Positions 16,572-63,930 of a DNA stretch of 64,000 bases are shown in pieces. A program made the position numbers and the translations under genes. The stretch's first letter is position 1. Each line of letters starts with the position of its first letter. The DNA is from Phlebopus portentosus (taxonomy: Eukaryota > Basidiomycota > Agaricomycetes > Boletales > Boletinellaceae). The notes beneath the pieces were generated by a model that was not told the origin of the DNA, searched no databases, and saw only the letters and a list, made by a program, of their open reading frames with translations. The stretch covers positions 682,001-746,000 of the forward strand of contig JAYXKI010000010.1 in assembly GCA_037892935.1 (NCBI GenBank), given 5' to 3'.

Positions 16572-19158
16572 CTAATACAAGTTTTCATCTATTTCGAGCA
16601 AGTTATTAGGGTATGTCATTCTCCGCTTTCGTCCCTCTACCTTTGTATCATAACGCGAGAATGTAGGCCTTGAGTAATTGATGTCCGAGTGATCCTCATC
16701 CACAATATCGAGGTCCCAGTCCCTCCTTATACGTTGGTGAACTAAGCGGAAGCTTGACAGAGAGCCCTTCTCCAAAATCATATCCACCGATACAGTATAT
16801 GCTAAATCATTTGTCTGGCGCATATCCAGTCTGCGTACTTCAACTCGGAATTTGACTGCCTTTACAGTTCCCATCACACCCGCCGGGTCGCGGACCTCAT
16901 CAAGATGGCACCGAAGGAACGTCACGCGCGGATCCTCATTATCCATAAGCACGAAGTTCACTCCTGCATTCGCGAGGAGTCTGCGGCACTCTTCGCAAGT
17001 CGTATCCAGGTCTTTCGTAGACATCATACGGAAAGATCCTGACCGAGGTTTGAATAGGTTTGTGAACCAAGAAATCTTCGGAGTGGAAGAGATGTTGAAA
17101 GATGATCCCTCGGAGATCGAATAGGTAGGAGAATGTGAGGTGGAAGAGTCGTACGAGACGCGTCTGTGTTTCCCTTCCTTGTGCTCAACAGGCGGGGGAA
17201 GGACTATCTGTACGTGACGATCGGTGAGAGCTCGTCGGTCTCCCTTCTTGCGCAAAGAGGACTTCTTGAACACTCGACCTCGATTTTCCTTGTCGGACGT
17301 GGGAGAGGCTGTTGAAATACCTAACCCACGCGAGTCTAACTCTTCTTCAGATTGAGAAACAAGAACATACGTGAAGTCTGGGTCGACTTCCATAACGGAA
17401 GAGACGCGCGACTTTCCCGGCGTTCGAAGAGGTTCGATTTTGAAGGAGGCCGGGAAATCAAGAGCGGGCGTTGCTCCGTTTGATGATGAGGGCGATAATG
17501 CTAGTGCACCGGGTTGTTTCTGCATTGCATTAAGACGATCGATGATATCCTGTAGATAACGTTGTACACGTTCATCGTGAAGCTCTGGTACGTCGGGAGG
17601 AGGTGTAACATCAAGAACCTGCCAGATCGGTGATGCCGGAGAAGTAGGCGGTTGCGGGGAACTAAACAGTGTCGACGGTGTCAAAAGGGAAGGGCTAAGA
17701 ATCGACTTGCCCAGAATATTCGGAGTCATATCGCTCGCTGCGGCATGCCGAGAGACTGGACGTAGAGTATACATTGCGGGAGGTGGAGGTAAAGAGGCCG
17801 GGCGAGAATTCGAAGTTTTGTTGCTGTTGTTTCCGGCTCGGCGCGGTGTCGGTGCATCTGGCCTTGCTATAGTCTGCGGAGGAGTAGAAGGACACTCATT
17901 CGACGGTGACATTTTGCCTTCCCTCTTTTCTAGCTCCGCACGCTTCCTTCTTCTTTCCGTGCGACGTTGAGATCGAGCGTGCTCCAATTCTTCATTGTAG
18001 TTTTCATAGCATTTTGAACGATACTTCATTAGCAGAGTGTATACGACTTTCTCCCAGGTTCGTTCTCCATTGATCAGACCTTCTATAATGTCCTCATCCG
18101 AAGCACCATGCCAAAGAGTACGTAAGTTGCCGAAAATGTCCACGTCAATTTCAGAAGCTTTCTTTATAGGACGAGTGATTTCATCCAGGGTTGGCGCGCT
18201 GCATTGTCGGTTCCGCAGGGGCTGGGAAGTAAACCAAGGGTGCTTCATAATATCTGAAATCTTGATACGTTTAGTAACATCTTTCTCCAGCATCCCGCGG
18301 ACGAGATCTTGCGCTTTTGGATTTATGTCAGAAGGCATACTGAACTTCCCTACAGAGACCTTCTCCAGCAGCGCACAGATGTCCTCGTCATCGAAAGGCA
18401 GTCTACCTGCTAGCAAAGCAAAGAGAATTATTCCGCAAGACCATATATCAGAGATAGCTCCGTCATATGGTTTGCTAGAGATGACTTCTGGAGCTGCGTA
18501 GTGAGGACTGCCGCAAGACGTTTTCAGTAGACTATCGCCGAGTTGCCAAGCAGCCATCCCAAAGTCAGCCACTTTCAAGGTCTTGTCCTTATCAAGCAAG
18601 ATATTCTCCGGCTTCAGATCGCGATGCGCGATATTGAGGCGATGACAGTAGTCCATCGCGCCGATAAGCTGCTGAAAATAGTCAAGAGCTTCAGTCTCTG
18701 ATAGGCGCCCACGCTCAATGATATAGTCGAAGAGTTCGCCGCCTTCGACATATTCAAGAATGAGATAGAGTTCGCCAGATGTCTCCCAGACGTCGTAGAG
18801 ATGCATGATGTTTGGATGATCAACAAGTTTCATGACAACTATTTCGCGCTCGAGGGCTAACATTATGCGCTTTGCATCGTCTTCTATATTCTTCAAGGAG
18901 CGGCGAGATTGGATGACTTGCAGCTTGGACATAATCTTGATAGCTGCGTATTTACCCGTCTTTGCATGACGCGCAATCCTCACAACGCCTGACAAAAGTA
19001 AGAGACTGTATTGAAGGAGAGCGTCGGGAAAACCCACCCATTGCTCCTTTCCCGATGGTTCTACCGATTTTCCATGGTCCAATCATACGAGGATGGTCGG
19101 ACCTACGGCCTCGACGCGGTAGCTGCGGTGGAGTCACCGGCCTGAGTTGCTCAGCCAT
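16572..19158 (-). CDS. Gin4/Hsl1/Cdr2-type serine/threonine protein kinase
   Basis: Two exons (19158-19038 and 18988-16572) encode 845 residues. The kinase domain spans about residues 25-300: IGKGAMGVV glycine loop, AAIKIMSK lysine, HRDLKPENIL catalytic loop, ADFGMA in place of the usual DFGLA, and a GSPHYAAPEV activation-segment end. A ubiquitin-associated-like segment follows (LWHGASDEDIIEGL). After a long disordered middle, the last 130 residues (CEECRRLLANAGVNF onward) resemble the C-terminal KA1 membrane-binding fold. This order is that of AMPK-related Nim1/Gin4/Hsl1 kinases, which couple septin assembly and cell size to mitotic entry through Wee1. Which paralogue it is cannot be decided by eye. 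It is divergently paired with LIG4 across 230 bp. Confidence 0.88.
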
Positions 19159-36950: not shown

Positions 36951-39296
36951 TGTAGTGCCCTGGCCAGTCCTGTGCCAGGACACTCATACTATGGCTCTCC
37001 CCTACTTCAGATACCATATCCCTTCGCCGCCTACACCTCAGAGGACCAAGGCACACTCATACCACACTCTAGAGGCCATATAAGCACATATCTATGGATT
37101 CTAGCCTACGCTTTCCCCTGCGGCGCCCTCCAAGAGCCCAGATGAGCCCGCCGCTGGCTCCCTGGCACCCATACAGATCCGCCGAAGGCTCCTACCCAGC
37201 ACCAGTCATCATAGGAGATGTCCCCCAATCATTATAGGCCTTCGTTATTACGATTCCTCATACGTACAGCCTTGAGGCGGATTTGGACACCCCTGCGGCG
37301 GCCCCCCAAGCCTCAGATTGGTCCGGTGGCCACTCAGGCGTCCTCAGGTGCCCTCGCCGAGGCCTCCTACAACTTACCAGGCAGTCCCCCAAGGCCTATG
37401 GATTTATCTAGTATCATCCCTGCTCATATGCCACCAAAGGCCGCACCTTTACGAATCCGCCGCCGATTGAGCGGCGAGTTGCAGATCCGCCGCTCCGGCG
37501 CCCCCCTTAGTTACCATGGATCGCCTACACTCTATATTGAGTGTGGCGGCGGCCTTGGGCGGCCTAGGGACCCTGACTGATGCGCCCTCGATCTCATATA
37601 CGCGATATCGGCCTCCGAACATCGGCCCCGACGTTTCCCGACTTCCCCCCAAGCGGCGGGCGACTCTAGACCATATATGGCAGTCAGACATGTGGTACAG
37701 CGGCGTGCCAAGCCACCGACCGCCGCTGCCAAGCCAGACTCCGCCGGCGCCCGTTTTATTGCAGATACTCGATATTTCATGCCATTGGATGATCCCCTCG
37801 CAATGCAGCTCTTGGGCGACTCCTAGATGCTCCGGCGGCGGCCCTTGGCAAGCCCAGTGACTCAGGAGATGTTGTCAGACAGTAGGACTCATCGGCGAGA
37901 GCAGTAGAGTATATATAGAGTGTATATTCATCAGTAGACGACACCACATACCAGATACTAGAGCACATTCATAGCAGAGAGCTTCCACAGCATACAAGGG
38001 CCAGGGTTCGAGATTCCCTCACTCTGAGCTCCCCCTCATGTACTGAGCTCCCCCATTGACTATATACTACCCTTGACTCGTCGTTCTATTCTCCTTCGGC
38101 GCCTCTGACATTTAGTGTGTGAGTCAGGACTGGGAACCTACCCCCAAACGTCTGCCGCACTCCATTGTACCTGTCGGGCGGCCCCTATCCGACCTCGGCG
38201 GCCCTCCGGCGACACGGGTCTTCTGTCCTACACCCCTGCGGCGTCTTTTCCAGTTACTCGCCGCACGTTGTCCCTTATATTCATCATAGACGGCCCCTAC
38301 CTTTCATTTATCCAGTTTACGCTACCGCGGCGGATTTGTACGAGCTCCCTCGTCCCTGGTGGCACCCTATTCGACCTCGGCGGCCCTCCGGCGACCCAGG
38401 CCTCCTTTCCTATTCCCCTTCGGGGTCCTTTTCATCTGCTGGCCGCACGTTGTCCCTTATATTCATCATAGACGGCCCCTACCTTTCATTTATCCAGTTT
38501 ACGCTACCGCGGCGGATTTGTACGAGCTCCCTCGTCCCTGGTGGCACCCTATTCGACCTCGGCGGCCCTCCGGCGACCCAGGCCTCCTTTCCTATTCCCC
38601 TTCGGCGTCCTTTTCATCTGCTGGCCGCACGTTGCCCCTTATATTCATCGTATACGGTCCCTTCCTCTTGTTTATCCAGTTTACACTACCGCGGCGGATT
38701 TGTACACGCTCCCTCGTCCCCGGCGGCCCCCTATTCGACCTCGGCGGCCCTCCGGCGACACAGGCCTTCCATTGTATTCCCCCTCGGCGTCTTGTTCACC
38801 TACTCGCCGCACGTTACACCTCGTATTGGTCGTATACGGTCCCTACCTTTCATTTATCCAGTTTACGCTACTGCGGCGGATTTGTACGAGCTCCCTCGTC
38901 CCTGGCGGCCCCCTATTCGACCTCGGCGGCCCTCCGGCGACACAGGCCTTCCATTGTATTCGCCCTCGGCGTCTTTTTCAGCTACTCGCCGCACATTATG
39001 CCTCATATTCGTCATATACAGTTCCTAGCTTCCCCTACTGAGATTGCGCTACTCCGGCGGACTCCTGTGACCTCCCCTTCGGTCCGGCGGACCTACTAGA
39101 GCATTCCTTTCATACCTCGGCGTCACTAGGCCACTCCCCCACGTCTCTGACGGTCTTTGGCACCTGCCAGGTGGTTAGTGGTTGGAGTCTGATAGCTTGA
39201 GGCTTCGTTTCTGGAGGTTTCTTCACACATTCAGCTCCCTTAGTAGGACGGACATCTGTAGCGCCTTCAGATAGAGAGACCACCCAGAATACCACA
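36951..39296 (+). repeat. 5' LTR, 2,346 bp
   Basis: Direct copy of 42841-45004. The first 1.24 kb seem identical at an offset of 5,890 bp, including every open frame compared. It differs in having five instead of four copies of an internal 182-bp unit and in at least one substitution (T at 38999 against C at 44707). A TATATATAG at 37910-37918 is the likely U3 promoter. A hairpin-forming GTCCTG-TGC-CAGGAC lies close to the 5' end. Confidence 0.92.
38191..39100 (+). repeat. Five tandem copies of a 182-bp unit inside the 5' LTR
   Basis: The anchor GACCTCGGCGGCCCTCCGGC starts at 38191, 38373, 38555, 38737 and 38919, exactly 182 bp apart. Because 182 is not a multiple of three, the same peptide words recur in all three frames. 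Long overlapping open frames here are therefore a by-product of the repeat and not genes. Confidence 0.9.
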
Positions 39297-39413: not shown

Positions 39414-41795
39414 ATGACACTCCCTCAATTCATCGATCCTGATGATCTCCCATTCGCCGGACCCTCTCCTACCATCTCAGGCTTCACTATGCCACTCCCT
39501 GGTGACAAATCTATCCCCAAAATCGACGTTTCTGGCTCCCCAACCTCCATACCTAGGTTTTTCGACACTGTCTACCTCCTTGGACGAACCGCCGGCCTCT
39601 CAGACTGCCATATCATCGCCTGGGCTCGCTTCTATGCACCGGCGAAAGAACAACCTCTCTGGAGGCACTGCGCCGAAGTGGCAGGCGATAACTATTCTGC
39701 CTTCCGAGACGCCGCACTCAAGATGTACCCACATTCCCGACCGGTTTACACCCTCCAAGACCTCCGGCGCCTCATTTTATCGACTCAGGCACTCCCCGGC
39801 TTCACCCTAGAGTCCTACGGCGGATTTCTGCAAGACTTCCACAGAGTTTCTGGGTACTTACTGCGAAATGGCGAAATTTCGACGTTTGAAGAACAACGAA
39901 TGTTTATGGAAGGAATCCCCGCCGCCTATCACAGGGGACTCAACTTCTCCCTTCGCCTGACTGACCCAGAACACGCCGCCGGCGTTCCCTGGCCGGTAGA
40001 AGCAGTGACAGATGAAATCCAGCGAATTGTCAAGGTACAACAGGTTTTAGCATATACTGAGTCCCCAGCACCCCTAGTCGAGGCCTACTATGCCAGCACA
40101 AGTCCCCCGGCCATCAGTCACATCCAGAACACCCTCGGCGTCGACGCCCATGCCAAAAACAAGCCGCCGATGCCTGCAGCACAAGCAGCCAATGGTCTAT
40201 ACGCCTCGCCGGCGAATGTATGGCCTCCTCAGCCAAAACTGAGCCCCTCGCAGATGCCTACCAATGCCCTGATCACTTCGCCGGCCCCATGGCATGTCCA
40301 GCGGCCTACTCTAGCCTTGCCCTCGACATTTTCGCCGGTTGCACACCAGGCCCAGCCCACACACTTTCTGGACATGCAAAAGTGTTCTTCAGCCCCCAAT
40401 GCATTCGCCGCTGACTTTCCTGCTCCGCCGCCGCCACCCCCTGCCAAATGCAAAGCCTCGGCGGATGATTCTAGCCTACAGAACATCACTACCATCCCTC
40501 TGGCGTACCCCCCAGCCCTGGCGGCCTCATGTAATGTCCTAGACCAATGGCCCATACCTGGTGTCTCTCTCATTCCGGCGACTCACGAACGGTTCTATCG
40601 GCGGCCAGACCCCGGTGCCCCTGCTTCCCATTTGGCCTCGGCGAACCTCAGGCAACCTTCCAAGCATCCCCCTAAAGGTTCCCAAGCCCCGCCGGCGGCT
40701 CAGGCCTGCAGTATTTGTGGTTTTACGATGCACCGAACAGCAAAATGCCCTACACGAAGCTTCCTACTCAATTCTGGCATTACTGTAGCTGACATGCACG
40801 GCCGCCTCATGCAACCTGATGGCAGGCCTTTCACTGGCAATCACTCTGGAGGCCGCATTTTAGATCAGCTGAATCGTTACTTTACTCGGAACGTGAACAT
40901 GATACCTCTCGGACTGCAAATACCTATTCTACCGCTTCCAGATGACCTAGGCCTCGCTTCGGCGCCCCAGGAACTGCCTTCCAACCGCCGCCGCAAGCCT
41001 CCTAGACAATGGGGCGTCCCCCAGGACACTCCAGGCGCCGGCCACACGCCTCAGGCGAAGTTACAGGGCCAGACGCCGCCGAATGACACCCGCGGCGCCT
41101 CTATGGTACTTGAACAGCTCCCAGACATGTCCCCCAGCCCGGCCACTGCTCCCCAAGTCAGGAAAGTACCCTCACCCTTCGGCACCATCCTCCCCAAGCC
41201 CACGGCGGCGATTCCAGATGACCCAGACGAGCCAATTAATCCGCCGATCCAACACAGCAAAGCATACATGAAGGCCTACTCACGTCAAGCATCCCTCACC
41301 AACGCCGCAGACACGCCGCCGCCCTGGAAACCACCGGCTGGCTTCCCTAAGGTCCTAGACAAGCCCCTAGCACCAGCAGTCGTCCCCTTGCATGAGATCA
41401 ACGTCCGCCTGAATGATACATTACAGGTTAATGGTGTCCTCGACTCTGGAAGTTCATTTATTGGTATCCCCCGACGTATATGGCGACAAATAAAATCGCC
41501 GGCCTGCATTTCCAACCCCACACACATCCAGACAGCCTCGCCGAACCCCAGCCAGAGCTCCCACATCATCCCCTGTGTCAAAATTTCACTCCCTGGGTTC
41601 TCTATGCATGCGCCGGTCTACATACTCGAAAATGCGCCGTTTGACCTCCTCCTTGGCCGGCCCTTCTTTGCACACACTCATGCTGTCACTGCAGACCTCG
41701 ACGAACACTTCCAAACCCTCTACATCACAGATCCAGTCACCGGCGAAGTTTTCTGCTTGCCTACAAGCCCCAGAACGCCTCTGCCGGTGCCCTAA
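39414..41795 (+). CDS. Gag-protease polyprotein of the LTR element
   Basis: An uninterrupted 793-codon frame on the element's sense strand. Residues about 40-210 are helical capsid-like Gag sequence (FDTVYLLGRTAGLSDCHIIA; FRDAALKMYPHSRP). A long Pro/Ala-rich linker follows. A zinc knuckle CSICGFTMHRTAKC (CX2CX4HX4C) lies near residue 430. The C-terminal part is a retropepsin with active-site VNGVLDSGSSF (about residue 670) and the late FDLLLGRPFF motif that forms the barrel end. The protein ends just after the protease. Its intact length argues that it is under recent selection or very young. It could package itself and be copied by a reverse transcriptase supplied by another element; that is inference. 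Confidence 0.85.
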   Translation: MTLPQFIDPDDLPFAGPSPTISGFTMPLPGDKSIPKIDVSGSPTSIPRFFDTVYLLGRTAGLSDCHIIAWARFYAPAKEQPLWRHCAEVAGDNYSAFRDAALKMYPHSRPVYTLQDLRRLILSTQALPGFTLESYGGFLQDFHRVSGYLLRNGEISTFEEQRMFMEGIPAAYHRGLNFSLRLTDPEHAAGVPWPVEAVTDEIQRIVKVQQVLAYTESPAPLVEAYYASTSPPAISHIQNTLGVDAHAKNKPPMPAAQAANGLYASPANVWPPQPKLSPSQMPTNALITSPAPWHVQRPTLALPSTFSPVAHQAQPTHFLDMQKCSSAPNAFAADFPAPPPPPPAKCKASADDSSLQNITTIPLAYPPALAASCNVLDQWPIPGVSLIPATHERFYRRPDPGAPASHLASANLRQPSKHPPKGSQAPPAAQACSICGFTMHRTAKCPTRSFLLNSGITVADMHGRLMQPDGRPFTGNHSGGRILDQLNRYFTRNVNMIPLGLQIPILPLPDDLGLASAPQELPSNRRRKPPRQWGVPQDTPGAGHTPQAKLQGQTPPNDTRGASMVLEQLPDMSPSPATAPQVRKVPSPFGTILPKPTAAIPDDPDEPINPPIQHSKAYMKAYSRQASLTNAADTPPPWKPPAGFPKVLDKPLAPAVVPLHEINVRLNDTLQVNGVLDSGSSFIGIPRRIWRQIKSPACISNPTHIQTASPNPSQSSHIIPCVKISLPGFSMHAPVYILENAPFDLLLGRPFFAHTHAVTADLDEHFQTLYITDPVTGEVFCLPTSPRTPLPVP

Positions 41796-42840: not shown

Positions 42841-45004
42841 TGTAGTGCCCTGGCCAGTCCTGTGCCAGGACACTCATACTATGGCTCTCCCCTACTTCAG
42901 ATACCATATCCCTTCGCCGCCTACACCTCAGAGGACCAAGGCACACTCATACCACACTCTAGAGGCCATATAAGCACATATCTATGGATTCTAGCCTACG
43001 CTTTCCCCTGCGGCGCCCTCCAAGAGCCCAGATGAGCCCGCCGCTGGCTCCCTGGCACCCATACAGATCCGCCGAAGGCTCCTACCCAGCACCAGTCATC
43101 ATAGGAGATGTCCCCCAATCATTATAGGCCTTCGTTATTACGATTCCTCATACGTACAGCCTTGAGGCGGATTTGGACACCCCTGCGGCGGCCCCCCAAG
43201 CCTCAGATTGGTCCGGTGGCCACTCAGGCGTCCTCAGGTGCCCTCGCCGAGGCCTCCTACAACTTACCAGGCAGTCCCCCAAGGCCTATGGATTTATCTA
43301 GTATCATCCCTGCTCATATGCCACCAAAGGCCGCACCTTTACGAATCCGCCGCCGATTGAGCGGCGAGTTGCAGATCCGCCGCTCCGGCGCCCCCCTTAG
43401 TTACCATGGATCGCCTACACTCTATATTGAGTGTGGCGGCGGCCTTGGGCGGCCTAGGGACCCTGACTGATGCGCCCTCGATCTCATATACGCGATATCG
43501 GCCTCCGAACATCGGCCCCGACGTTTCCCGACTTCCCCCCAAGCGGCGGGCGACTCTAGACCATATATGGCAGTCAGACATGTGGTACAGCGGCGTGCCA
43601 AGCCACCGACCGCCGCTGCCAAGCCAGACTCCGCCGGCGCCCGTTTTATTGCAGATACTCGATATTTCATGCCATTGGATGATCCCCTCGCAATGCAGCT
43701 CTTGGGCGACTCCTAGATGCTCCGGCGGCGGCCCTTGGCAAGCCCAGTGACTCAGGAGATGTTGTCAGACAGTAGGACTCATCGGCGAGAGCAGTAGAGT
43801 ATATATAGAGTGTATATTCATCAGTAGACGACACCACATACCAGATACTAGAGCACATTCATAGCAGAGAGCTTCCACAGCATACAAGGGCCAGGGTTCG
43901 AGATTCCCTCACTCTGAGCTCCCCCTCATGTACTGAGCTCCCCCATTGACTATATACTACCCTTGACTCGTCGTTCTATTCTCCTTCGGCGCCTCTGACA
44001 TTTAGTGTGTGAGTCAGGACTGGGAACCTACCCCCAAACGTCTGCCGCACTCCATTGTACCTGTCGGGCGGCCCCTATCCGACCTCGGCGGCCCTCCGGC
44101 GACACGGGTCTTCTGTCCTACACCCCTGCGGCGTCTTTTCCAGTTACTCGCCGCACGTTGTCCCTTATATTCATCATAGACGGCCCCTACCTTTCATTTA
44201 TCCAGTTTACGCTACCGCGGCGGATTTGTACGAGCTCCCTCGTCCCTGGTGGCACCCTATTCGACCTCGGCGGCCCTCCGGCGACCCAGGCCTCCTTTCC
44301 TATTCCCCTTCGGCGTCCTTTTCATCTGCTGGCCGCACGTTGCCCCTTATATTCATCGTATACGGTCCCTTCCTCTTGTTTATCCAGTTTACACTACCGC
44401 GGCGGATTTGTACACGCTCCCTCGTCCCCGGCGGCCCCCTATTCGACCTCGGCGGCCCTCCGGCGACACAGGCCTTCCATTGTATTCCCCCTCGGCGTCT
44501 TGTTCACCTACTCGCCGCACGTTACACCTCGTATTGGTCGTATACGGTCCCTACCTTTCATTTATCCAGTTTACGCTACTGCGGCGGATTTGTACGAGCT
44601 CCCTCGTCCCTGGCGGCCCCCTATTCGACCTCGGCGGCCCTCCGGCGACACAGGCCTTCCATTGTATTCGCCCTCGGCGTCTTTTTCAGCTACTCGCCGC
44701 ACATTACGCCTCATATTCGTCATATACAGTTCCTAGCTTCCCCTACTGAGATTGCGCTACTCCGGCGGACTCCTGTGACCTCCCCTTCGGTCCGGCGGAC
44801 CTACTAGAGCATTCCTTTCATACCTCGGCGTCACTAGGCCACTCCCCCACGTCTCTGACGGTCTTTGGCACCTGCCAGGTGGTTAGTGGTTGGAGTCTGA
44901 TAGCTTGAGGCTTCGTTTCTGGAGGTTTCTTCACACATTCAGCTCCCTTAGTAGGACGGACATCTGTAGCGCCTTCAGATAGAGAGACCACCCAGAATAC
45001 CACA
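42841..45004 (+). repeat. 3' LTR, 2,164 bp
   Basis: Direct copy of the 5' LTR with one fewer 182-bp unit (anchors at 44081, 44263, 44445 and 44627). The length difference of 182 bp is exactly one unit. The TATATATAG box recurs at 43800-43808. No clear polypurine tract precedes it; the preceding bases are T-rich, then AACCTGGAGA. Confidence 0.92.
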
Positions 45005-48593: not shown

Positions 48594-49423
48594 TTAATGG
48601 CGGTTTGCTCGCCGGATGAGGGTTGCGAGGAGTAGCGTCCCAACCGCTGCTGCGCCGCCGGCGAGTGCGAGGCCGATGTAGCCTTCTGTAGAATCGAAGG
48701 AACGCAGCAACCCATGAGCCATTAGATCAGATTTTGTCGGGTGATGGGCATGGAGGATAGGAAAGTAAACGCACCTCGTGTCATCTTCTGGTCTATCAGC
48801 TCGGCGAGACTCTGCGCTTGCATGTTGTTTGGTTCTTTCTCCAGCAATAAGGCTGGGCGGGATACATATCAGAATGAGCGTATCTAGGTAAGAAAGACTG
48901 AGACGAACCATTAAACCTCTTCGCCTCTTCGTAGTTCCCCATCTTGTACTGACCCAAGGCAAGGTAATACAAACATTCTCTCCTTCGTGGAGGTTCCGCA
49001 CGGTATATCTCTGCGTTGCGGCAATGTAGTCAGCATCCGCACGGAAGTCACTTGGCGTTAAGATTGTAAGGAATTGAGCCTCGTGAAAGTAAATCCAACC
49101 ACAAGAAAGCAAGGGGGAAAAAAAAAAAATAGAACTCCTGACTGACTGACCTTGTAAGAGCTTCACGCCATTCACCTGGTGTTCATATTTCGGACTCTTC
49201 ACAAGTCCCCAAGCATAATTAAACTTTGTCTGCACAGTAACATGCCCAGCTTCCACTTCCTTTTCGTACTGCAGCCTCAACACCTAAATTGAACAATAAG
49301 GTCAGCGCGTGAAACGAACATGGACTTTAGCCATGGAACCCGAAAGAAGGATGAACACACCTCGAGCTCGTCGTAGGATAATGACTGCTCAGCATCTGCT
49401 GCGTAGGGAAGATCGGTTGGCAT
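48594..49423 (-). CDS. FIS1: Mitochondrial fission protein 1
   Basis: Five exons (49423-49361, 49283-49151, 49010-48909, 48852-48775, 48685-48594) give 155 residues. The TPR-like fold shows [40 protein letters not shown] and [13 protein letters not shown]. The tail is a single membrane helix ([20 protein letters not shown]) with a basic end RRANRH, giving tail anchoring in the mitochondrial and peroxisomal outer membrane. Fis1 recruits dynamin-like Dnm1 through adaptors. Length and tail match the family and the phases close exactly. Confidence 0.95.
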
Positions 49424-49815
49424 CGTGTACCGTATCTCTACTGCAATCCAGGTAGTAGTAGAAAACGAAGAGACGCTCGAGTTGAATAAGTACGTACGTA
49501 TGTGTTTTGACTACTGTGCCGGACGGACTGCGTCGGCCAAGCGGCAACAGCGACGCACAGGTGCCCATTTCAGGTATATTGTTCTCACGGGATCGCTTTT
49601 ATAAATACACGCACGAAGTTCGGGCTTTACAGTAAATGACTACATTCTAAATCTACTACTAGATGAGAGCAGAGATTTGCCTACGACTACCAAATCAACG
49701 ACGCAGCTTGACTAATGTCCTTTTGTGCTTTTCTAACCCTCTACTAACGATACACTTTGTCTACTTCTACACTACACTTCTACTTTGCTTTACTTTGTTA
49801 AATTTGAATATGGTT
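49424..49815. other. Intergenic spacer
   Basis: Lies between the iPGM stop codon and the FIS1 start codon, both genes being on the minus strand. It would hold the iPGM 3' region and the FIS1 promoter. No motif is convincing. Confidence 0.45.
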
Positions 49816-51710
49816 CTATTTGCGGACGAGGAGAGATCGGCCGGTCATGTCTGCGGAAATACAGATTAGATTTGAGTTAGAGTAGGCAGAGTGAATACGT
49901 ACCTTCAGGTTTGTCAAAACCCATCAAATCAAGAATAGTCGGAGCGACATCGCAAAGGGCACCACCCTCCTCGTCAGTGGCTTCCTTATCCTCAAGGAAT
50001 CTGTATTTCTTCGGATCGCCGGTCATAATGAACGGGACCTTGTTCGTCGTGTGCGCGGTGTGCGGTTCACCCGTCTCCGGATTGATCATCTGTTCGGCAT
50101 TACCGTGATCCGCTGTGATGAGCAAGAGGTATCCTGCCTCCTCGCATGCTTTGTAGACAGTCCCGACAGCAGCATCCGTCGCCGTGATAGCCTTCACGGC
50201 TGCGTTGTAGACACCAGTGTGCCGACCATATCAGGCGGAGCGAAGTTGCACATGATGAACTCGTGCTCCTTCTTTTTCACGAGCTCTGCGACTTTATCCG
50301 CTACACTCTGAACGCTCATCTCGGGTTGCTTGTCGTATGTCGGTACCTTGGGAGACGGAATCATGTGGCGCTCCTCGTTCTCAAATTGCTTTTCGACACC
50401 ACCGTTGAAGAAGAACGTTACATGTGCGTATTTCTCCGTTTCAGCGACGTGAGCTTGCTTGATACCTTTCTTGGAGAGCCATTCAGCGAGCACGTCATGC
50501 ATGCCTTGCGGAGGGAAAGCGATTGGGAATGGAAACTCTATGTTGTATCGCGACATCGTAAAGATTCCCTGATTAACATGGTGAGATAGATTCGCAGTAT
50601 CAAAGAGTACTAGTGCGTACGAGATCCTTGGGTGTTTCAACCTCCGTGGGCTTCTCTTCAAAGCCGAATACAGTTACAATTTCTCGCATACGATCAGAGC
50701 GATAGTTGAAGAAGAATAGAGTATCTCCATCTGCGAAGGCTAATATAGCGCAAACCGATGAAGAGTGAAGAAATTAGCGTACCCTTGATACGGCCCTCTT
50801 CGCTGATGATGATTGGCTTTAAGAATTCATCGGTTTCTCCCTTTTTGTAGCGCTCCTCGATTGCTTTCACGGGATCATCAGCTTTCTCACCTTCTCCTCT
50901 CACCAAACCATCAACAGCAATCTTGATGCGTTCCCAACGCTTGTCGCGATCCATGGCATAGTATCGGCCCGTTACATCCGCAATTTCACCGTATTTTTCT
51001 TTTTCGACGAATCCTTTCAGCTGTTTCGCGTATCCAGCACCGGATTCTGGTGCAGTATCACGTCCATCGCCGAAGAAGTGAACGAAAGTCTTTGGTACTC
51101 CTTGTTCCTTAGCCGTCTCTAGTAGAGCGAATAGATGTCTAATATGTGAGTGTACACCACCATCGGATACCTGCGGTCGCGATTCATTAAGAAAATACAG
51201 ACGCCACACGGAGATTGAGTGAACTTACCAGGCCGAGGAGATGCAGGCGGCCGTTCCCCTCCTTGGCGCGCTTGCACGCCTCAAGAATTTTGTCCAACTT
51301 ATGGAACTGGCGTTTCTTGATGGACTGGTCGATGCGTACGATATCTTGCCACACGATGCGTCCAGCTCCGATGTTGAGATGCCTTTGCAATGATACGTTA
51401 GAATGCTTCCGTAAGTATCAATGATGCGCATATATACGCACCCGACTTCGGAGTTGCCCATGAGTCCTTCGTTCAGACCAACTGCGATACCGTGCGCAAA
51501 AAGAGTACGGACGCTATGGTCTTTTGAGATCGTGTCCATGTTCGTCGTGTCGCCAGCTGTAATTGCATCGCCTTTCATGTCCTTCTGAGGAGCGATTCCC
51601 CAGCCATCATGAACGCTACGCGTAATGGATATATATGCGATGAGTTATGGTAACAGAAAGTAGCTAAAATCTACGCACATCAAACACACTTTTTCCTTGA
51701 CTTGGACCAT
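49816..51710 (-). CDS. gpmI: 2,3-bisphosphoglycerate-independent phosphoglycerate mutase
   Basis: Seven exons (51710-51679, 51615-51442, 51382-51229, 51170-50783, 50730-50621, 50568-49903, 49850-49816); about 519 residues once one missing base is allowed. The enzyme interconverts 3- and 2-phosphoglycerate in glycolysis using two manganese ions. Visible marks are HDGWG at the first metal site, the catalytic serine in [45 protein letters not shown], and ADHGNAEQM at the metal site. Exon 6 is 666 nt, one short of the phase required. The break lies at about 50219-50222, where the family sequence [12 protein letters not shown] is split by a missing C (G on the plus strand). As read, the frame ends early. 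Confidence 0.92.
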
Positions 51711-55808: not shown

Positions 55809-56075
55809 TTAGCGAACTAGTGAAGGAACCCCACTAACATCGTTTCCAAAGTTCGCTCCGTCTCCCTTGCTGCCATTTCCACTGATCGCATCGCCACTTA
55901 TAGAGATTCCGCCATTGCCAGCACGGAAGGTGGCGCCATTGTTTGTGATGTTGCCTTCGTCACCGTCGACATTCACATTGCCTCCATTTGCATTGCCCGT
56001 GCTCCCGCTCGATACACTGGCATCCTTTTCATTGCCGTCGGGATCCGTGATGCTCGATTTCAGGTCCATAGCAGA
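55809..56075 (-). pseudogene. In-frame extension of secreted repeat protein A beyond a TGA
   Basis: Immediately after the TGA that ends gene A (56078-56076), the same frame stays open for 88 codons to the next stop. It is rich in Gly, Asn, Ser and Asp (SGSTGNANGGNVNVDGDEGN; GGISISGDAISGNGSKGDG). This composition resembles the Asn/Gly-rich parts of gene C. It looks like the original C-terminal half, separated by one nonsense codon or read by stop-codon readthrough. Confidence 0.5.
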
Positions 56076-56484
56076 TCAACTATCATTCAGTCCTGGCGTG
56101 AATCAAGCGTCGATAATTGCAGGTGTTCCGAGCAAATTATCGATAAGGTGACATACCAATCGAAGCCAATAGATCGCCGACGGTACCACTGATGTACGCA
56201 ATACTGCCATCACTAGGCGTAGAAGTATCCAACGCATTTGTAGCCTCTGCTGAGGCAGAAGGAGTCACTCGTGGATCTACATCTTGATGAACATCTCCTT
56301 TGTCAATTTCGTTTCTGTCTCGCCTCGCCTTGCAATAATAGTCAGAGAGTTAAAAACCACGTAGAGAGAAAAGAGGAGCAATTCTAACCTTTATGCAGAG
56401 ATCGGCATTTGTGCACGGCGCAGAGAGCACAGAAGCAACAACAGTAGACAAAATGATAAATGTTGAAACGGAAGAGAATAGCAT
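56076..56484 (-). CDS. Secreted repeat-family protein A (short)
   Basis: Three exons (56484-56389, 56328-56157, 56092-56076) give 94 residues. The first 21 form a signal peptide (SVSTFIILSTVVASVLSAP), then a cysteine pair CTNADLC. Exon 2 ends with GTVGDLLASIG, the same core seen in genes B and C, and joins exon 3 by a phase-1 intron inside a glycine codon, exactly as in gene B. Exon 3 codes only GLNDS before TGA; GL-D-S is how every module in gene B begins. So the gene seems truncated one residue group into its next module. The function is unknown; it is presumably extracellular or in the cell wall. Confidence 0.6.
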
Positions 56485-56576
56485 GATAATGGCTCGGAGC
56501 AAAAGCGTTCCTGACCGTTCAAGAAAGAAATATAGTATCGAAGATAATGATTTAGAAATAGCAGAGCCGCCCAGCG

Positions 56577-56587
56577 GAAGTCAACCT
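56577..56587 (-). promoter_or_regulatory. CCGC(N3)GCGG palindrome upstream of gene A
   Basis: On the coding strand CCGCTGGGCGG, 93 bp before the gene A start codon. It is the variant form of the identical sites before genes B and C. CGG half-sites in inverted orientation are typical of fungal Zn2Cys6 regulators; a stem-loop in the leader is the alternative. Confidence 0.55.
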
Positions 56588-57734
56588 TGACCACGGGCCA
56601 ACAGTTGAAGGAAAATGAAGTAAATGTGATAGCCCGCTGACTGCTTGAGTGCAAGCGACCTACCCATTATATACGCAACCCGGTATATACAACCCGGCAG
56701 TCCAGGACAAGCAAGAATCATAGGCGAGCCATAGATCCGTCGTGTGGAGAGTAGATGGTCGTGTACGAAGTGGTCTTCGTCTTTGCAATTTACCAAGCTT
56801 CTCTGCTGGAGAAGAATGTCCTAGACAATTCATAGCTGTAGTGCAGTGAAATTCCTCTTCCTCATGGACGGCCGATACCAAGAATGCAAGCGTAGCGTCC
56901 AAGGGGTGCTTTTACCAAGTTCACCTACCTACATGATGATGATGACGGTTGCTGATCAGTTACAGAAGATCGTCCCTCGGGATCCGCGGATATCCCAGAT
57001 TGGGACGAGTTGCTTATTTTAGACGCGACGGATTTGCCCGGAAGCTGCTTTACTGTATTCTGACATAGCCCATGATGAAGAACATCTGGATAGTTGCGAA
57101 GTTGGCTTGTTCATCATTCATCGCTTTGAAACTGGTGACATGGTAAGTCGCCTCCTCGATTCGACTTCTGAGGATCAAGACTACCTGCATCTGTGAACGG
57201 GGGGAACAATGCACTGCGCTCGTATGATGCAATGATAGTTTCTATGGTTAGAGGAAGTGTCTTGATAGGCATTCCGTCCATGCACCATGAGTACCTCTGG
57301 ATACGGACGGGAATGATTCAAGGCTATGACTCAGTGAGGACGACTTGGTGACAGCGCACAGGAAGCTACGACAAGTTGCTAGGACGCTCGTTTCGCACAC
57401 CATTCAGGCAAGCCTTCAAAAGCTCGAAATGTTCATCGTAAGATACACAAAGCTTGCTTCATTACCGCTCCGCAGCATCTACGCAAAGCACAGGAATATT
57501 TCTCAATAAGGATAAGATAGGTATCAACATGAAATAATGATGTACGAAATTCAAGGCGAAGCGGACCTGTAAGAATCCAGCAAAGTGATCAGAGTTTTAT
57601 TAAGGCAAAAAATGGGTATCGGCGAGGCATGAGACTGGTATCCATTATGCGTGATGATGCATTAATCCAGATCAATAACCAGACTCCGGCCAAACAAAAT
57701 GCCGTGGTCACCAGTTTACCTGCGAGCAGACTGG
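56588..57734. other. Spacer between genes A and B
   Basis: No supported gene. Short minus-strand frames (56660-56902, 57050-57232) lack signal peptides, modules or repeats. It may include the gene A promoter and gene B 3' region. Confidence 0.4.
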
Positions 57735-59216
57735 TCAAGCTGAAGCTCCAGATGCGAGCCCCTGAAGACCATCAAGGAGATCTATTATGGACGAGCTCCC
57801 ATCCAAGCCTATTATTCCTTGAATCAGATCTCAGAACCATCCAGCTAATGCTGAATCTCACCAAGCGAACCAAGCAAGTCGCCGATCGTGCTTGAGCCCG
57901 TAGATACGAGACTTTGGATATTACCGAGAGCATTCGTCAAAGACGTATCTCTCTTCAAACCTAAAAGATGACGGCATGAGCTTCTAGTGGAGATAATCGA
58001 ACACTATAACTTACCGATTAAATCCAATAAATTACCGATCAAACTCGATGAGGAGCCACCGGAAAGAAGTCCTTGAAGACTACCAACGGCGTCGGTCAAA
58101 GAAGTTGCATCACTCAGGCCTAGATTACCGAACATGAACTGATATGTCATTGATAGAAAAAAGTCCTAAAATTTACCAAGTTGTCCCAGTAAATCACCGA
58201 TTGATCCAGTCGAGCCAGTTACACCAGATAGCAAACTCAGTATGCCGCTGATGGCCTCCGTAGCAGTAGATTCATCACTCAGTCCTGAAAGACGTGATCA
58301 GGAAAACCGAATATTCAAATATTAATGGAAAAGACGAACCCGCTGAGCCCAACAAATCACTTATCGTGTTGGATCCAGCCTCACCGGACAGGAGACCTTG
58401 GAGACCGCTTACAATATCCGTCAAGGAGGATGCGTCGAGGCCTGGAAGTTGTCCATTGCGAGCTCAATGTATGGCTTGACGAGTATAATGGAATTTACAC
58501 TTACCAAGGGAGCCGAGCTGGTCAGTTAAACTAGATAAGGTAGAATTCCCACTGGAAACGAGACCCTCGAGGGTGCTCAAAGCGTCAGTCAGGGTGGAAG
58601 TATCGCTTAAACCTTTTTCGGTTGATTCAGTGGGTGATCTCAATGGGATTTATGGGTTCATGCTTACCAACCGAGCCCAATAGGTCTCCGACTGTTCCGG
58701 TCACGCCGGAGAGTTCACTTGTGAGAAAACTCTCTGCTGTACTAATTACTTCGGGCAGGGATGACCCATCGGTCAAACCTAGAAAGTACATGATGAGCCT
58801 GCATCGCGGCCGCATCAAGGAAATCATACAAGGACTAACCAAGGGAACCGAGTAGGTCACCAATTGAATTTGTTCCAGCACCGCCAGACAAGAGTCCCTG
58901 AATGCCGCTGAGGAGCTCGGGGACAGAGGATGAATCTAGACCTAGACAGCACCACAGTTGATACTTCGTAGCCATCAGTGCATCATTAATGATACCCACC
59001 AAGTGATCCAAGGAGGTCCCCAAGTGACGTGGTAGAGACTGTGGTCTTGGTATTAGCATCGTACCATCATTGATGAGATAGAATCATACCTGTGGTGTTG
59101 GCATCAGTGACCGACGTCGAGGTAGGAGATGGTGAAGCAGTTTGTGGAAACGGAGCAGCTAGAGCTGACTCAGCGAGTACAAATGCAGCAGAGACGAAGA
59201 CCAATGAAGGTCGCAT
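57735..59216 (-). CDS. Secreted repeat-family protein B (one module per exon)
   Basis: Ten exons (59216-59090, 59038-59000, 58941-58840, 58778-58668, 58612-58505, 58441-58340, 58284-58177, 58119-58015, 57960-57862, 57808-57735) give 324 residues. A signal peptide (SLVFVSAAFVLAESALAAP) leads into Ser/Thr-rich sequence. Exons 3-9 each encode a 33-37-residue module: it begins GL-D, has a core like SSLTDIVSGLQGLLSG and ends like GSNTISDLLGS. All nine introns are phase 1 and, between modules, split a glycine codon, so modules can be duplicated or dropped without frame change. Exon 2 is a short end-module and exon 10 a truncated one ending LQGLASGASA. The modules are amphipathic, without cysteine, and match no family I know. 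Homologous modules occur in genes A, C and D. Confidence 0.75.
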
Positions 59217-59286
59217 AGTGGCGGCCGTTTAGAGATCTAGAGGGGATAGACTGAAGAAAAGGATTGTGGAATACAAAGAATGTGAG

Positions 59287-59297
59287 CCGCACAGCGG
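59287..59297 (-). promoter_or_regulatory. CCGCTGTGCGG palindrome upstream of gene B
   Basis: Located 71 bp before the start codon and identical to the site before gene C. A TATAAA-like box on the same strand lies at 59371-59376, 155 bp before the start, so the palindrome sits between core promoter and ATG, possibly in the leader. Confidence 0.6.
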
Positions 59298-59376
59298 AAA
59301 GAGTGACGTTGACTGTTGGTTAGGAGTATCAATATGGAGGCAAAAGATTTGAGTTCGCTTTCTTCGGGACTTTATA

Positions 59377-60720
59377 GAAAACTTGAGAGGAAGCACACGC
59401 TGATCATGGCTATGATAAAAGAAAAGACCCGAAGCTCCACAGCTAGTCGACGCGGTTTCCAGGTATGTGGAGAGATCATACCGGCTAGCTTCCATTTTTT
59501 CTTGGATGATCGGTACAAGCTCGGTTTTCGACTCGCATATCATATGATTCCATCATGGAGACACAAAGGATGAGACACGTGGCAACAAAACAACGCGGGA
59601 ACCCGACATATACATATAGCTTAGAAATCAATTCGGACGCAATAACTGACTTCTCTTCTCCGCGTTCGTTGTATTGCAATTTGCTCATGCTCTCGCGTGA
59701 TTACTACAGTGAGAAAATGTGGCCAAAAGCTCGAAAAACCCCTGAAAGCCCAGAAGCTCTCGAAGCTCTTAATAATCTAATCTAATGGAAGGCTACGTCC
59801 AGTCCTCTAGACAATATATTAATCAAGGCGGGGAAGATCGATGCGATAGCACATCATTGACTATTCAAAGCCGCAGAAAAATCCTAGTTGGCGGAGAGTA
59901 AAAACAGATCGACTGCGCGGTGGCAGGATCTTGGAAAACAACAAACAAATGCGAGTAAACCTGATAGAAGATTTAAAACAGAGCCGTAGGCGCTCTTACA
60001 CCACTCTCGACATACAGAATAAGCGGAGGTGATCAGAAGAGATGTTTGGTAGATAGGTAAATGCAACAGGCGCCGTACTTCGCAAGTGAGGAGTGATCTT
60101 GGATCCTTGCGAACGACAAAGAGACACTATTTATAGTAAATCACTTTCAGTGTTCAAGCTTGTTCGCTAGTACAGCATATAAGTTCTTTTTCAGAGAATG
60201 CACCTGTTGAAACAGAGTAACGATTCGTCAAATATCTCACTTGAGAAATTGTACAGACATCCGTCTAATTTCTAGAGAACCTTCTTGTGATCCCTGCCTG
60301 CACTCTGATCATGTGTAGCTCATATAACGTCGCTAAAACACTAACGTGCATTTAATGACTGCAAATTCGGACCACCCAGATATACGACTCTTTTCAGAGT
60401 CTTTCGTGTCTTCTGCTTTACGTACACATCGCACCCAGAGCTCGGAAATAATTTATTCCGCCGCAGCAGAGTACTACGTATCTATGCAACAGCGTCAGGT
60501 AGAGCGAAGGAGGGGGATGAATGAACTATATATGGCAAGCTAGCGTCCGAAGTCGGAGAAGTCCTTAAGAGGAAGGGGAAGCTTGACACGCGAAAACACA
60601 CTTAAGAGATCTCGAGAAGGCTGGTTCGAGACGGAACGGGAAGAGGGAGAGGAGAAAGTGTAAATGGGCAGGCGAAGGATATCTGAATGCGTCCAGCGGA
60701 AACAGAGTTAGACGAGCCAT
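59377..60720. other. Spacer between genes B and C
   Basis: Contains the distal upstream region of gene B and the 3' region of gene C. No supported gene; frames such as 59229-59543 on the minus strand run through the gene B leader and have no conserved content. Confidence 0.4.
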
Positions 60721-62577
60721 CTAGTATTCGGCAGCCAAGCGTCTCATGGCACGTCGGTTGCGACGGAAGCGCGCAGTACCTGTACTGGAGCCTGTCAAGC
60801 CACCGAGAAGGTTACTCAAGGAGTTTGAATCAGTTCCGGTCGTGCCAGACGTGAGTCCCTGAAGACCACCCAGCAAATCGGTCAAGGAAGACGTGTTGTC
60901 AAGACCTGAAGCCGAGTATTAGATTTCTAACGAATTCATAATAATGTAATTAGACGAACGCTTACCAAGAAGACTCAGTAGGTCGCTGATCGAGTTCGCG
61001 CCAGTAGAGTCCGTCGACCCGTCTGTAGCAGTCGCATCGGCCGCAGTATCTGTAGCAGTCGCTTCAACCGCGGTATCTGTGGCCGTATCCTCTGCTGCAG
61101 TATCAGTAGCAGTCGCGTCTGCCGCAGTGTCCGTAGCAGTCTCCTCTGCCTCAGTGTCTGTAGCAGTCTCCTCTGCCTCAGTGTCCGTAGCAGTCTCCTC
61201 TGCCTCAGTGTCCGTAGCAGTCTCCTCTGCCGCAGAGTCCGTGGTAGTCGCTTCAGTCGCTGTGTCCGTGGCCGTATCCTCTGCCGCAGTGTCCGTAGCG
61301 GTCTCCTCTGCCGCAGTGTCCGTAGCGGTCTCCTCTGCTTCAGTGTCCGTCGCAGTCGCGTCTGCCGCAGTGTCCGTAGCGGTCTCCTCTGCTTCAGTGT
61401 CCGTAGCAGTCTCCTCTGCCGCAGAGTCCGTGGCCGTATCCTCTGCCGCAGTGTCTGTAGCAGTCTCCTCTGCCTCAGTGTCCGTCGCAGTCGCGTCTGC
61501 CGCAGTGTCCGTAGCGGTCTCTTCTGCTTCAGTGTCCGTAGCAGTCTCCTCTGCCGCAGAGTCCGTGGCCGTATCCTCTGCCTCAGTGTCCGTCGCAGTC
61601 GCGTCTGCCTCAGTGTCCGTAGCAGTCTCCTCTGCCGCAGAGTCCGTGGTAGTCGCTTCAGCCGCTGTGTCCGTGGCCGTATCCTCCGCCGCAGTGTCCG
61701 TGGCAGTCTCCTCTGCTTCAGTGTCCGTAGCAGTCTCCTCTGCAGCAGAGTCCGTGGCCGTATCTTCAGCAGCAGTGTCCGTAGCAGTCGCTTCAGCTGC
61801 AGTGTCCGTAGCGGTCTCCTCTGCCTCAGTGTCCGTAGCAGTCTCCTCTGCCTCAGTGTCCGTAGCAGTCTCCTCTGCCGCAGAGTCCGTGGCCGTATCT
61901 TCAGCAGCAGAGTCCGTAGCAGTCGCTTCAGCCGCAGTATCTGTAGCAGTAGCATCTGCTGCCGCCGTGTCCTGTAATGCATGATGAGCAAGGTCAACAC
62001 GACTCATTTCATTCAGGAAGAGGAAATGCAAGTACGTACTGTAGCTGCGCAATCAACTGTTACGGTGACTGTCTCAGTATCATCGGTGTTGTCATTTCCG
62101 TCCGTATTTCCATTGTCATTGGCGTTATTGCCATTCCCCCTTTGGTGTCTTGCCTCCAGATCTGAGGCAGCGGTATCCGTAGCTGTAGCATCATCAGCAC
62201 TCGCCGTCGCAGAGTCAGTGGCTGCAGTATCTGTGGCCACAGTGGTATCAGTAGCAACGGCGGTGTCCTGTCGTAGGAATTAGTACCAAAATCGTAGCAG
62301 TCTAGATGAAAAACGTACTGTAGCGGCACAAACAGTTACAGTAGACGTGGCGGCGGCGTCATTCCCATTTCCATTGTTGTTCGCGTTGGCGTTCCTCCCA
62401 TTGCCATTTCCCCTTTTTATCGCGTTTCTAGGATGTCTTGCCTACACAGGACATTGGCTCGAAGGTCATGGTTTAAAAGCTGTTTAATCTCACCTCGAGT
62501 TCGAGATGAGTCGGTGCAGCGACCGATGAGCCGGCAAGTGCTAAGACTAAAGAAACGAGAGCCAAAGACAACCTCAT
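60721..62577 (-). CDS. Secreted repeat-family protein C with TATD repeats
   Basis: Five exons (62577-62494, 62441-62319, 62267-62040, 61971-60966, 60905-60721) give 541 residues. The signal peptide is LSLALVSLVLALAGSSVAAP. Exons 2 and 3 carry a duplicated segment, ARHPRN/ARHQRG followed by Asn/Gly-rich sequence and ending TVTVCAAT/TVTVDCAAT. The KR in AIKRGNG could be a Kex2 site. Exon 4 encodes about 35 tandem nine-residue units of the form TATDTAAEA or TATDSAAEE, highly acidic and threonine-rich, likely O-glycosylated. It ends with NSISDLLSLLG, then a phase-1 intron into GLDNTSSLTDLLGGLQGL, the family module. The C-terminus is strongly basic (RFRRNRRAMRRLAAEY). No known family; a cell-wall or matrix protein is inferred. 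Confidence 0.75.
61025..61960 (-). repeat. 27-bp coding minisatellite of gene C, about 35 units
   Basis: The coding-strand unit is close to ACTGCTACGGACACTGAGGC plus seven bases, and variants mix GAG/GCG and TCC/ACC codons. All units keep frame and none holds a stop. Unit variants recur in runs (EE, EA, ED, DA endings), indicating local duplications of two to five units. A long open frame on the opposite strand is a by-product. Confidence 0.9.
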
Positions 62578-62672
62578 ACTGACGGATATTCGAATTTAAA
62601 TGTAACGATGTCGATATGGAACAGAAGACTGTCACCCAAAAAAGAAGGTCGCCAAGAAGAGAACGAAGAGGA

Positions 62673-62683
62673 CCGCACAGCGG
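62673..62683 (-). promoter_or_regulatory. CCGCTGTGCGG palindrome upstream of gene C
   Basis: Located 96 bp before the gene C start codon and identical in all 11 bases to the site before gene B. A TATATAAT box lies at 62785-62792 on the same strand, 208 bp before the start. Confidence 0.6.
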
Positions 62684-62792
62684 GGAAGAACGATCTTGAT
62701 CTCTGATCAAGAAGAAGGTTGGAAGAGGAAGGAAAGTGCGAACAGCGAAGGGACGGTTTGAAGTTTTAGGGGGATTTGGACGACATTATATA

Positions 62793-63553
62793 GAGAACTT
62801 TGTTCAGCCCAGATCAGAAGTTGGCAAGAGATTCACAGCTTTGTCGTCGTTTGTCGTAAGTCGAAACACTGTCGAAACGCGGAAAAAGGACTCAGATCAG
62901 AAAGAGAAACTTCAATTTTGTTTGTTTCCAGGAAGTTGCATTGCGACTAGAAAAAGGGCTTGTTTTCTCAGGTGTCCGTTGCATGCTCGGCAACGGATGC
63001 TTTCTTTTAGCGAAGCATATATGACCTTTGCATGGCGACGGGGTAGTGGGGAGTTGGAGAAGAGGTTCACAACAACGCGTAAACGAACGCGACGCGTCGC
63101 TTAGTCATCATTGCAGAAGTCGGAGATCTTGACCAAATGTAGACACAGGGGGCGGAATTACGTTTCTGAGCGGCTTATAGGAAACAGAATTGGAAAGCTC
63201 GCCTCTGATTGGCTGGATTTCAATTCCGGATCAAATCTTTTAGGTTCGGAAATAGGGTTTTGCCCCCCGTGTATATAGACCGAAGAAGAGGTTTCTTATA
63301 ACGGGTGCCTCATGTTCTTATGCTCTTATGCTCAGCAGGGGCATCCGCAGTCCGTTGCTTCCTCGCGTGTAACTTCCAACGGTTTCGTCCCGGAGAATAA
63401 TGATGGTCGAATAGATTTCAATCAACAATACTTGGCACGAGCATAAGTATCGTCTACAGTGACATCTTCTGTCAGGCCAGCTCTTCAATCTGAAAGTACC
63501 CTGCATCCAATATTTGCCGGAATAGAGCCCGTCTGTGCAGTATTTACTGTGAT
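62793..63553. other. Spacer between genes C and D
   Basis: Holds the distal gene C upstream region and the second copy of the 129-bp element. Outside that element I see no supported feature. A gene D 3' exon could lie here, since a good GTATGT donor occurs in gene D near 63597. Confidence 0.4.
63144..63271 (-). repeat. 129-bp inverted-terminal-repeat element, copy 2
   Basis: Reverse-oriented copy of 35193-35321, nearly 90 percent identical by eye over 128 bp, with the same terminal repeats (CACAGGGGG) and the same internal CCAAT segment. TATATAAG is degraded to TATAAG here. No target-site duplication is obvious. Confidence 0.75.
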
Positions 63554-63930
63554 TTAACTACGTATTTCCATGCTTTGCGAGAGATCCACGACATACCTGG
63601 CACTTCGACCAAGATCAACAGAGTCGGTCACGCCATCAAGAACCGATCCAGCATCACCCGCGACGCCATAGGTGGCTCCATTTGCCGTATCCGTAACTCC
63701 TCCTCCAACGGCGTCGGTTCCCGTTGCACTATTTGCTACGCTTCCAACCACTTCAGTGACGCTGTCTACGACGTTCCCGAGTCAGTCTGCTGAGAAGTCC
63801 TCCCGCCGTGCCGCTAGACTCTGCGGAACTGGAATCTGTGTCAGCAAGTTCTGTCGCGTCGGCTATGGTTGAATAATCAAAAGTCAAATCGTCAGACACA
63901 TCAAATCCTGTCCCTTGAGTAAATCATCGG
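63554..63930 (-). pseudogene. Secreted repeat-family protein D, partial and frame-broken
   Basis: The window edge cuts off the 5' end. The visible exon reads ADATELADTDSSSAESSG and then GTAGGLLSRL, which matches the module end of genes A-C. The frame then breaks at a 4-bp tandem duplication (AGTCAGTC at 63780-63787). Without one copy the frame would continue as GNVVDSVTEVVGSVANSATG and a Gly/Ala/Thr-rich stretch to a stop at 63554. A GTATGT donor near 63597 suggests that the real exon may end there. It is the fourth member on the same strand. Whether it is a pseudogene or an assembly slip cannot be told. Confidence 0.45.

What the first reader, a model, noticed from the sequence alone, without database searches (positions are those of the whole stretch)
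55809..63930. Undescribed cluster of four secreted module proteins
Four same-strand neighbours share a module ending like GSNTIGDLLGSLG, three show signal peptides, and each differs in added content (Asn/Gly tracts, TATD repeats, module number). I know no named family with this layout. It behaves like a fast-evolving surface or effector-type locus.
Basis: partly seen in the sequence, partly recalled or inferred. Interest (0 to 1): 0.8.

Follow-up and report, generated by a model that had tools for sequence, protein, structure and literature searches.

The report
Orphan fungal secreted module gene cluster
Three neighbouring genes of a wood-decay fungus appear to make secreted proteins built from a short helical building block, one exon per block, that matched no known protein family in our searches; what they do is not known.

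Summary
The core observation holds, with corrections. The window comes from a Hymenochaetales fungus close to Sanghuangporus. Gene B (57735-59216, minus) is a predicted ten-exon, 324-aa, cysteine-free, acidic protein with a signal-peptide-like start. Exons 3-9 each encode one full module of about 33-37 aa; all nine introns are phase 1 and the eight internal exon lengths divide by three. Gene C (60721-62577, 541 aa) ends with the same module, behind Asn/Gly-rich units and about 34 copies of a 27-base repeat. Gene A (56076-56484, 94 aa as modelled) has only the last third of a module, then the same phase-1 intron. 'Gene D' is not supported. A 14-base sequence occurs three times in the 38.4-Mb genome, 81-106 bases before the ATGs of A, B and C. 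Module matches found in the own genome lie only here. Pfam, PDB sequences and a large protein collection gave no credible relative. 'Fast-evolving' is not shown: the modules are old duplicates under protein-level constraint. Best reading: a lineage-restricted surface/matrix family of amphipathic helical hairpins. Function, secretion and expression are inferred; an apoplastic effector role is not excluded.

The parts
57735..59216 (-). Gene B, predicted: 10 exons, 324 aa, signal-peptide-like start, all 9 introns phase 1
   Evidence: splice-site reading and joined translation
58840..58941 (-). gene B exon 3, one full module
58668..58778 (-). gene B exon 4, one full module
58505..58612 (-). gene B exon 5, one full module
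58340..58441 (-). gene B exon 6, one full module
58177..58284 (-). gene B exon 7, one full module
58015..58119 (-). gene B exon 8, one full module
57862..57960 (-). gene B exon 9, one full module
60721..62577 (-). Gene C, predicted: 5 exons, 541 aa, signal-peptide-like start, intron phases 0,0,0,1
61021..61950 (-). 27-base tandem repeat (34.4 copies) encoding a Thr/Ala/Asp/Glu nonapeptide array in gene C exon 4
60966..60990 (-). module end (ISDLLSLLG) before the phase-1 intron in gene C
60721..60905 (-). gene C exon 5: one module plus basic tail
56076..56484 (-). Gene A, predicted: 3 exons, 94 aa, signal-peptide-like start, intron phases 0,1; ends in TGA five residues after the module border
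56157..56187 (-). module end GTVGDLLASIG in gene A, followed by the phase-1 intron
55809..56069 (-). 86-aa Asn/Gly-rich open frame behind the stop of gene A, same frame; status undecided
56564..56577 (-). 14-base upstream element, 93 bases before the ATG of gene A
59284..59297 (-). 14-base upstream element, 81 bases before the ATG of gene B
62670..62683 (-). 14-base upstream element, 106 bases before the ATG of gene C

Best explanation
Genes A, B and C are a small, locally duplicated, lineage-restricted family of secreted proteins of the hyphal surface or extracellular matrix. The shared unit is a cysteine-free helical hairpin: a helix of about 15 residues, a Gly/Ser loop and a helix of about 10. 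In gene B each full unit sits in its own exon between phase-1 introns, so units can be gained, lost or skipped without breaking the frame. Gene B would be a chain of such hairpins whose leucine faces pack on each other and form a self-assembling or surface-active coat. Gene C places one unit behind a long acidic Thr-rich stalk, a likely O-glycosylation target, and ends in a basic helical tail; it would dock into the same layer and carry the stalk outward. Shown from sequence: shared module, intron phase, shared upstream 14-mer. Predicted: gene structures, helices. Inferred: secretion (signal peptides by eye), co-expression, assembly, location, docking of C on B.
For: One module per exon, nine phase-1 introns, eight internal exons divisible by three. 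The same phase-1 border in genes A and C. Gene C module found by gene B's profile at E 7.6e-7 and by one module in the whole genome. Mean pN 0.35 against mean pS 0.79 between modules, so the protein is constrained. Predicted two helices per module (mean pLDDT 76.7, pTM 0.36) and the same two plus a tail helix in gene C (71.9, 0.31). First-helix hydrophobic moment reached by at most 5% of 300 shuffles in 5 of 7 modules. No Cys, net charge -28 in mature B; net charge -118 and 30.5% Ser+Thr in mature C. Shared 14-mer upstream.
Against: No transcript, secretion or localisation data. Signal peptides judged by eye. The models have low pTM and only single modules could be folded, so packing between modules is untested. 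Two of 7 modules do not beat shuffles in hydrophobic moment. No GPI or wall-anchor signal seen by eye. No relative with known function.
Confidence: 0.45

Rival explanations
1. Apoplastic effectors: unprocessed repeat proteins that coat the hyphae or act on the tree host during colonisation, in role like Rsp3 of Ustilago maydis.
For: Locus-restricted, repetitive, secreted-looking; Sanghuangporus is listed among tree pathogens (PMC10410303, passages); Rsp3 is an unprocessed repetitive protein that decorates hyphae (PMC5923269, passages).
Against: No sign of rapid change between modules; no host-induced expression data; no sequence link to any effector; Sanghuangporus also decays wood.
Confidence: 0.25
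2. Precursors of secreted peptides cut out by Kex2.
For: Repeats behind a signal-peptide-like start; a few dibasic sites (one in B, four in C, one in A).
Against: The modules are not separated by dibasic residues: gene B has one such site for seven full modules, whereas the class is defined by sites flanking the repeats (PMC9769878, passages).
Confidence: 0.05
3. A decaying gene cluster, or predicted genes that are not expressed.
For: Gene A stops early in a module with an open frame behind its stop; gene D is not supported; no transcripts were available.
Against: Gene B and gene C have intact frames over 10 and 5 exons with GT-AG introns; pN well below pS.
Confidence: 0.1

Closest known systems
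Rep1 repellents of Ustilago maydis (PMC4617103, passages)
   Same: Secreted, cell-wall located, mostly tandem repeats of 34-55 aa that give amphipathic peptides; unit size overlaps the 33-37 aa here
   Different: Rep1 repeats carry Kex2 sites and are cut into peptides; gene B has one dibasic site. No sequence comparison with Rep1 was made
Rsp3 and other unprocessed repeat effectors of Ustilago maydis (PMC5923269, passages)
   Same: Repetitive secreted protein not predicted to be cut by Kex2
   Different: Rsp3 has a Cys-rich region; gene B has no Cys. No sequence comparison was made
SP7-like effectors of arbuscular mycorrhizal fungi (PMC11333574, passages)
   Same: Signal peptide, 6-11 imperfect repeats, a conserved island at the end of each repeat, a conserved intron before the first repeat
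   Different: SP7 repeats are hydrophilic; gene B is about 20% Leu and has an intron at every module border
Kex2-processed repeat proteins of Agaricomycetes (PMC9769878, passages)
   Same: Signal-peptide-like start and internal repeats
   Different: No Kex2 sites between the modules
Hydrophobins (definition recalled)
   Same: Proposed surface role only
   Different: No eight-Cys pattern: B 0, C 2, A 2 Cys in the mature parts

Membership tests
Kex2-processed repeat proteins | Repeated cores separated by KR, RR or KK | tested here: not met
   one dibasic site in mature gene B for seven full modules; in C one near the start and three in the tail; one in A
Kex2-processed repeat proteins | N-terminal signal peptide | tested here: inconclusive
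   by eye only in A, B, C
Rep1-type repellents | Kex2-cut amphipathic peptides forming amyloid-like fibrils | tested here: not met
   cut sites between modules absent; fibrils not testable
Hydrophobins | Eight conserved Cys (recalled) | tested here: not met
   0, 2 and 2 Cys in mature B, C, A; no Pfam match
Any Pfam-A family | Score above the curated cut-off | tested here: not met
   gene B, gene A and a shortened gene C; best DUF2501, 9.2 bits against cut-off 21. The open frame behind gene A was not scanned
Unprocessed repeat effectors (Rsp3-like) | Secreted, host-induced, binds or shields against host proteins | not testable with these tools
   needs expression and binding data
SP7-like effectors | Hydrophilic repeats with the family's end-of-repeat signature | not tested
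   no sequence comparison; repeats here are Leu-rich

The most novel reading that the evidence does not exclude
An undescribed exon-encoded assembly module of fungi: gene B is a scaffold of about eight helical hairpins, gene C a client that carries one hairpin on a glycosylated stalk and docks on B, and frame-neutral gain, loss or skipping of module exons tunes scaffold length, giving a modular hyphal coat.
Probability: 0.12. Interest if true: 0.7.

Novelty: new variant of a known kind. Interest (0 to 1): 0.4.

Why it matters
Many secreted fungal repeat proteins have no family and no readable history. Here the gene structure keeps it: one module per symmetric exon, the same border in three neighbouring genes, synonymous sites near saturation. 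If the module folds and assembles, it would be a small cysteine-free building block unlike hydrophobins or Kex2-cut repellents, and a clear case of a basidiomycete protein growing exon by exon.

Tried and rejected
Gene D (63300-63930): rejected as a member. The codon score is weak evidence: a gag-like frame in the window also scores low.

More copies in the genome: a module-end pattern of 27 places gave 5 matches, 4 in gene B and 1 in gene C, and 0 for the reversed control; it finds only 4 of gene B's 7 full modules, so sensitivity is limited. One module as a protein query gave 4 matches, 3 in B and 1 in C; the mature part of gene B gave 8, all in B, so that search missed gene C. The profile found nothing further in L002 or L003.

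Upstream element: a related site on C13 differs at the variable base and lies, by eye, in unrelated sequence. The 11-base core with up to one mismatch is not enriched in the window (4 found, 3.27 expected).

Gene C's own parts: the Asn/Gly-rich unit matched twice and the nonapeptide array four times, only in gene C.

Spidroin match of gene B (E 0.0088) and bacteriocin match of the module profile (E 0.072): taken as compositional, not tested further.

Papers: searches for fungal secreted proteins with one repeat per exon, for repellents and Kex2 proteins (36), Sanghuangporus effectors (38), SC15/surface proteins (48) and SP7 (56); listings only, and no listed paper described this family. Passages were read in five papers. 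The library lacks most subscription papers.

Full report
Origin. The window is C10:682001-746000 of a genome of 38,374,347 bases in 23 contigs. A kinase in the window (16572-19082, minus) is 94% identical over 96% of its length to a Sanghuangporus baumii protein and 59% to proteins of Phellinidium and Coniferiporia. So the fungus is a Hymenochaetales species near Sanghuangporus. The same call shows that the protein collection holds many fungal proteins; whether it holds the whole proteome of any Sanghuangporus was not checked.

Gene B. Reading splice sites on the minus strand gives ten exons and a 324-aa product. The nine introns are 51-63 bases, GT...AG, all phase 1. The internal exons are 39, 102, 111, 108, 102, 108, 105 and 99 bases. 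Exons 3-9 hold one full module each; exon 2 holds a module end (E 0.0046) and exon 10 a truncated module (E 0.027). Six modules are 42-64% identical to that of exon 6. Over the 21 module pairs mean pN is 0.35 and mean pS 0.79; for 13 of 21 pairs pS is too high for a dS estimate. The duplications are therefore old and the protein sequence constrained; modules are short, so single values are rough. Inner intron sequences resemble each other slightly more than single-base shuffles do (mean pair score -2.4; shuffles mean -4.9, best of 30 -3.6), which may be shared splice signals or a trace of common origin.

Gene C. Five exons, 541 aa, intron phases 0,0,0,1. After a signal-peptide-like start come two related Asn/Gly-rich units that end in TVTV(D)CAAT, then the nonapeptide array (27-base repeat, 34.4 copies, 81% matches), then a module end, the phase-1 intron, and one module with a basic tail. 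Gene B's profile finds this module at E 7.6e-7, well above shuffles of the same exon (26.7 bits against at most 11.5, 1997 scored).

Gene A. Three exons, 94 aa, intron phases 0,1. GTVGDLLASIG is followed by the phase-1 intron, then LNDS and TGA. The module end alone is weak (E 0.35; 5 of 2000 shuffles as good or better); the intron place and phase and the upstream 14-mer make membership likely. An 86-aa Asn/Gly-rich open frame lies behind the TGA in the same frame. Codon scores do not decide whether it is coding (0.139 in frame, 0.154 in the next frame). Its status is left open.

Gene D. Not supported.

Upstream element. CCGCTGKGCGGYYC, with an inverted repeat CCGC-3-GCGG at its core, occurs three times in the genome, 93, 81 and 106 bases before the ATGs of A, B and C. 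TATA-like sequences lie 79-107 bases further upstream, with further ones in A. Against over-reading: the pattern was written after seeing the sites; by my own base-count estimate about two matches are expected by chance; equally similar stretches turn up in 1-3 of 300 shuffles and in 3-5 of 300 random triples from the window. It may be a regulator site, a 5' leader feature or shared ancestry.

Structure and composition. AlphaFold2 on the seven modules predicts two helices (residues 3-18 and 23-32; mean pLDDT 76.7, pTM 0.36). The end of gene C gives three helices, the third in the basic tail (mean pLDDT 71.9, pTM 0.31). Mature B: 304 aa, net charge -28, no Cys, 20% Leu, 31% Ser+Thr. Mature C: net charge -118, 2 Cys, 30.5% Ser+Thr. 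Mature A: net charge -6, 2 Cys. The hydrophobic moment of the first helix reaches the top 5% of shuffles in 5 of 7 modules.

Relatives. Pfam: one match, DUF2501 at E 2, far below its cut-off. PDB sequences: spidroin at E 0.0088 and 0.02 for gene B; a bacteriocin at E 0.072 and weaker ones for the module profile. Proteins: gene B none at E <= 1e-3 among 7997 scored candidates; residues 455-541 of gene C none at E <= 1 among 2462. The search's length limits (0.55-1.75 times the query) and unpredicted genes could hide relatives. Own genome: matches only in this locus, with limited sensitivity.

Interpretation. A secreted-looking, repetitive, lineage-restricted family. I favour a surface or matrix role with assembly through amphipathic hairpins (0.45); an apoplastic effector role is the main rival (0.25). 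Kex2-cut peptides are disfavoured by missing dibasic sites. No functional step has been tested.

Verdict. A real orphan family with unusually regular gene structure; three genes, not four; not shown to evolve fast; a new variant of the known kind 'repeat-containing secreted fungal proteins'.

Noticed in passing
L002:5452-5664 and L002:4418-4750, minus (right of the window): Two tandem, related short open frames with signal-peptide-like starts (76% identical over 96 bases); the second lacks an ATG at the matching place.
   Followed up: partly
window 39414-41795, plus: Gag-like frame with an aspartyl protease domain (PF13650, E 2.5e-6), probably from a retrotransposon; similar long repeat-like frames at 38165-39099 and 44005-44807 flank it.
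   Followed up: no
window 55809-56069, minus: 86-aa Asn/Gly-rich open frame directly behind the TGA of gene A, in the same frame: other splicing, a relic or an assembly matter.
   Followed up: partly
window 48594-51209 and L002:6285-6506: Neighbours usable for synteny: Fis1 (PF14852) and BPG-independent phosphoglycerate mutase (PF06415) on the left, a DUF383/DUF384 gene on the right.
   Followed up: no
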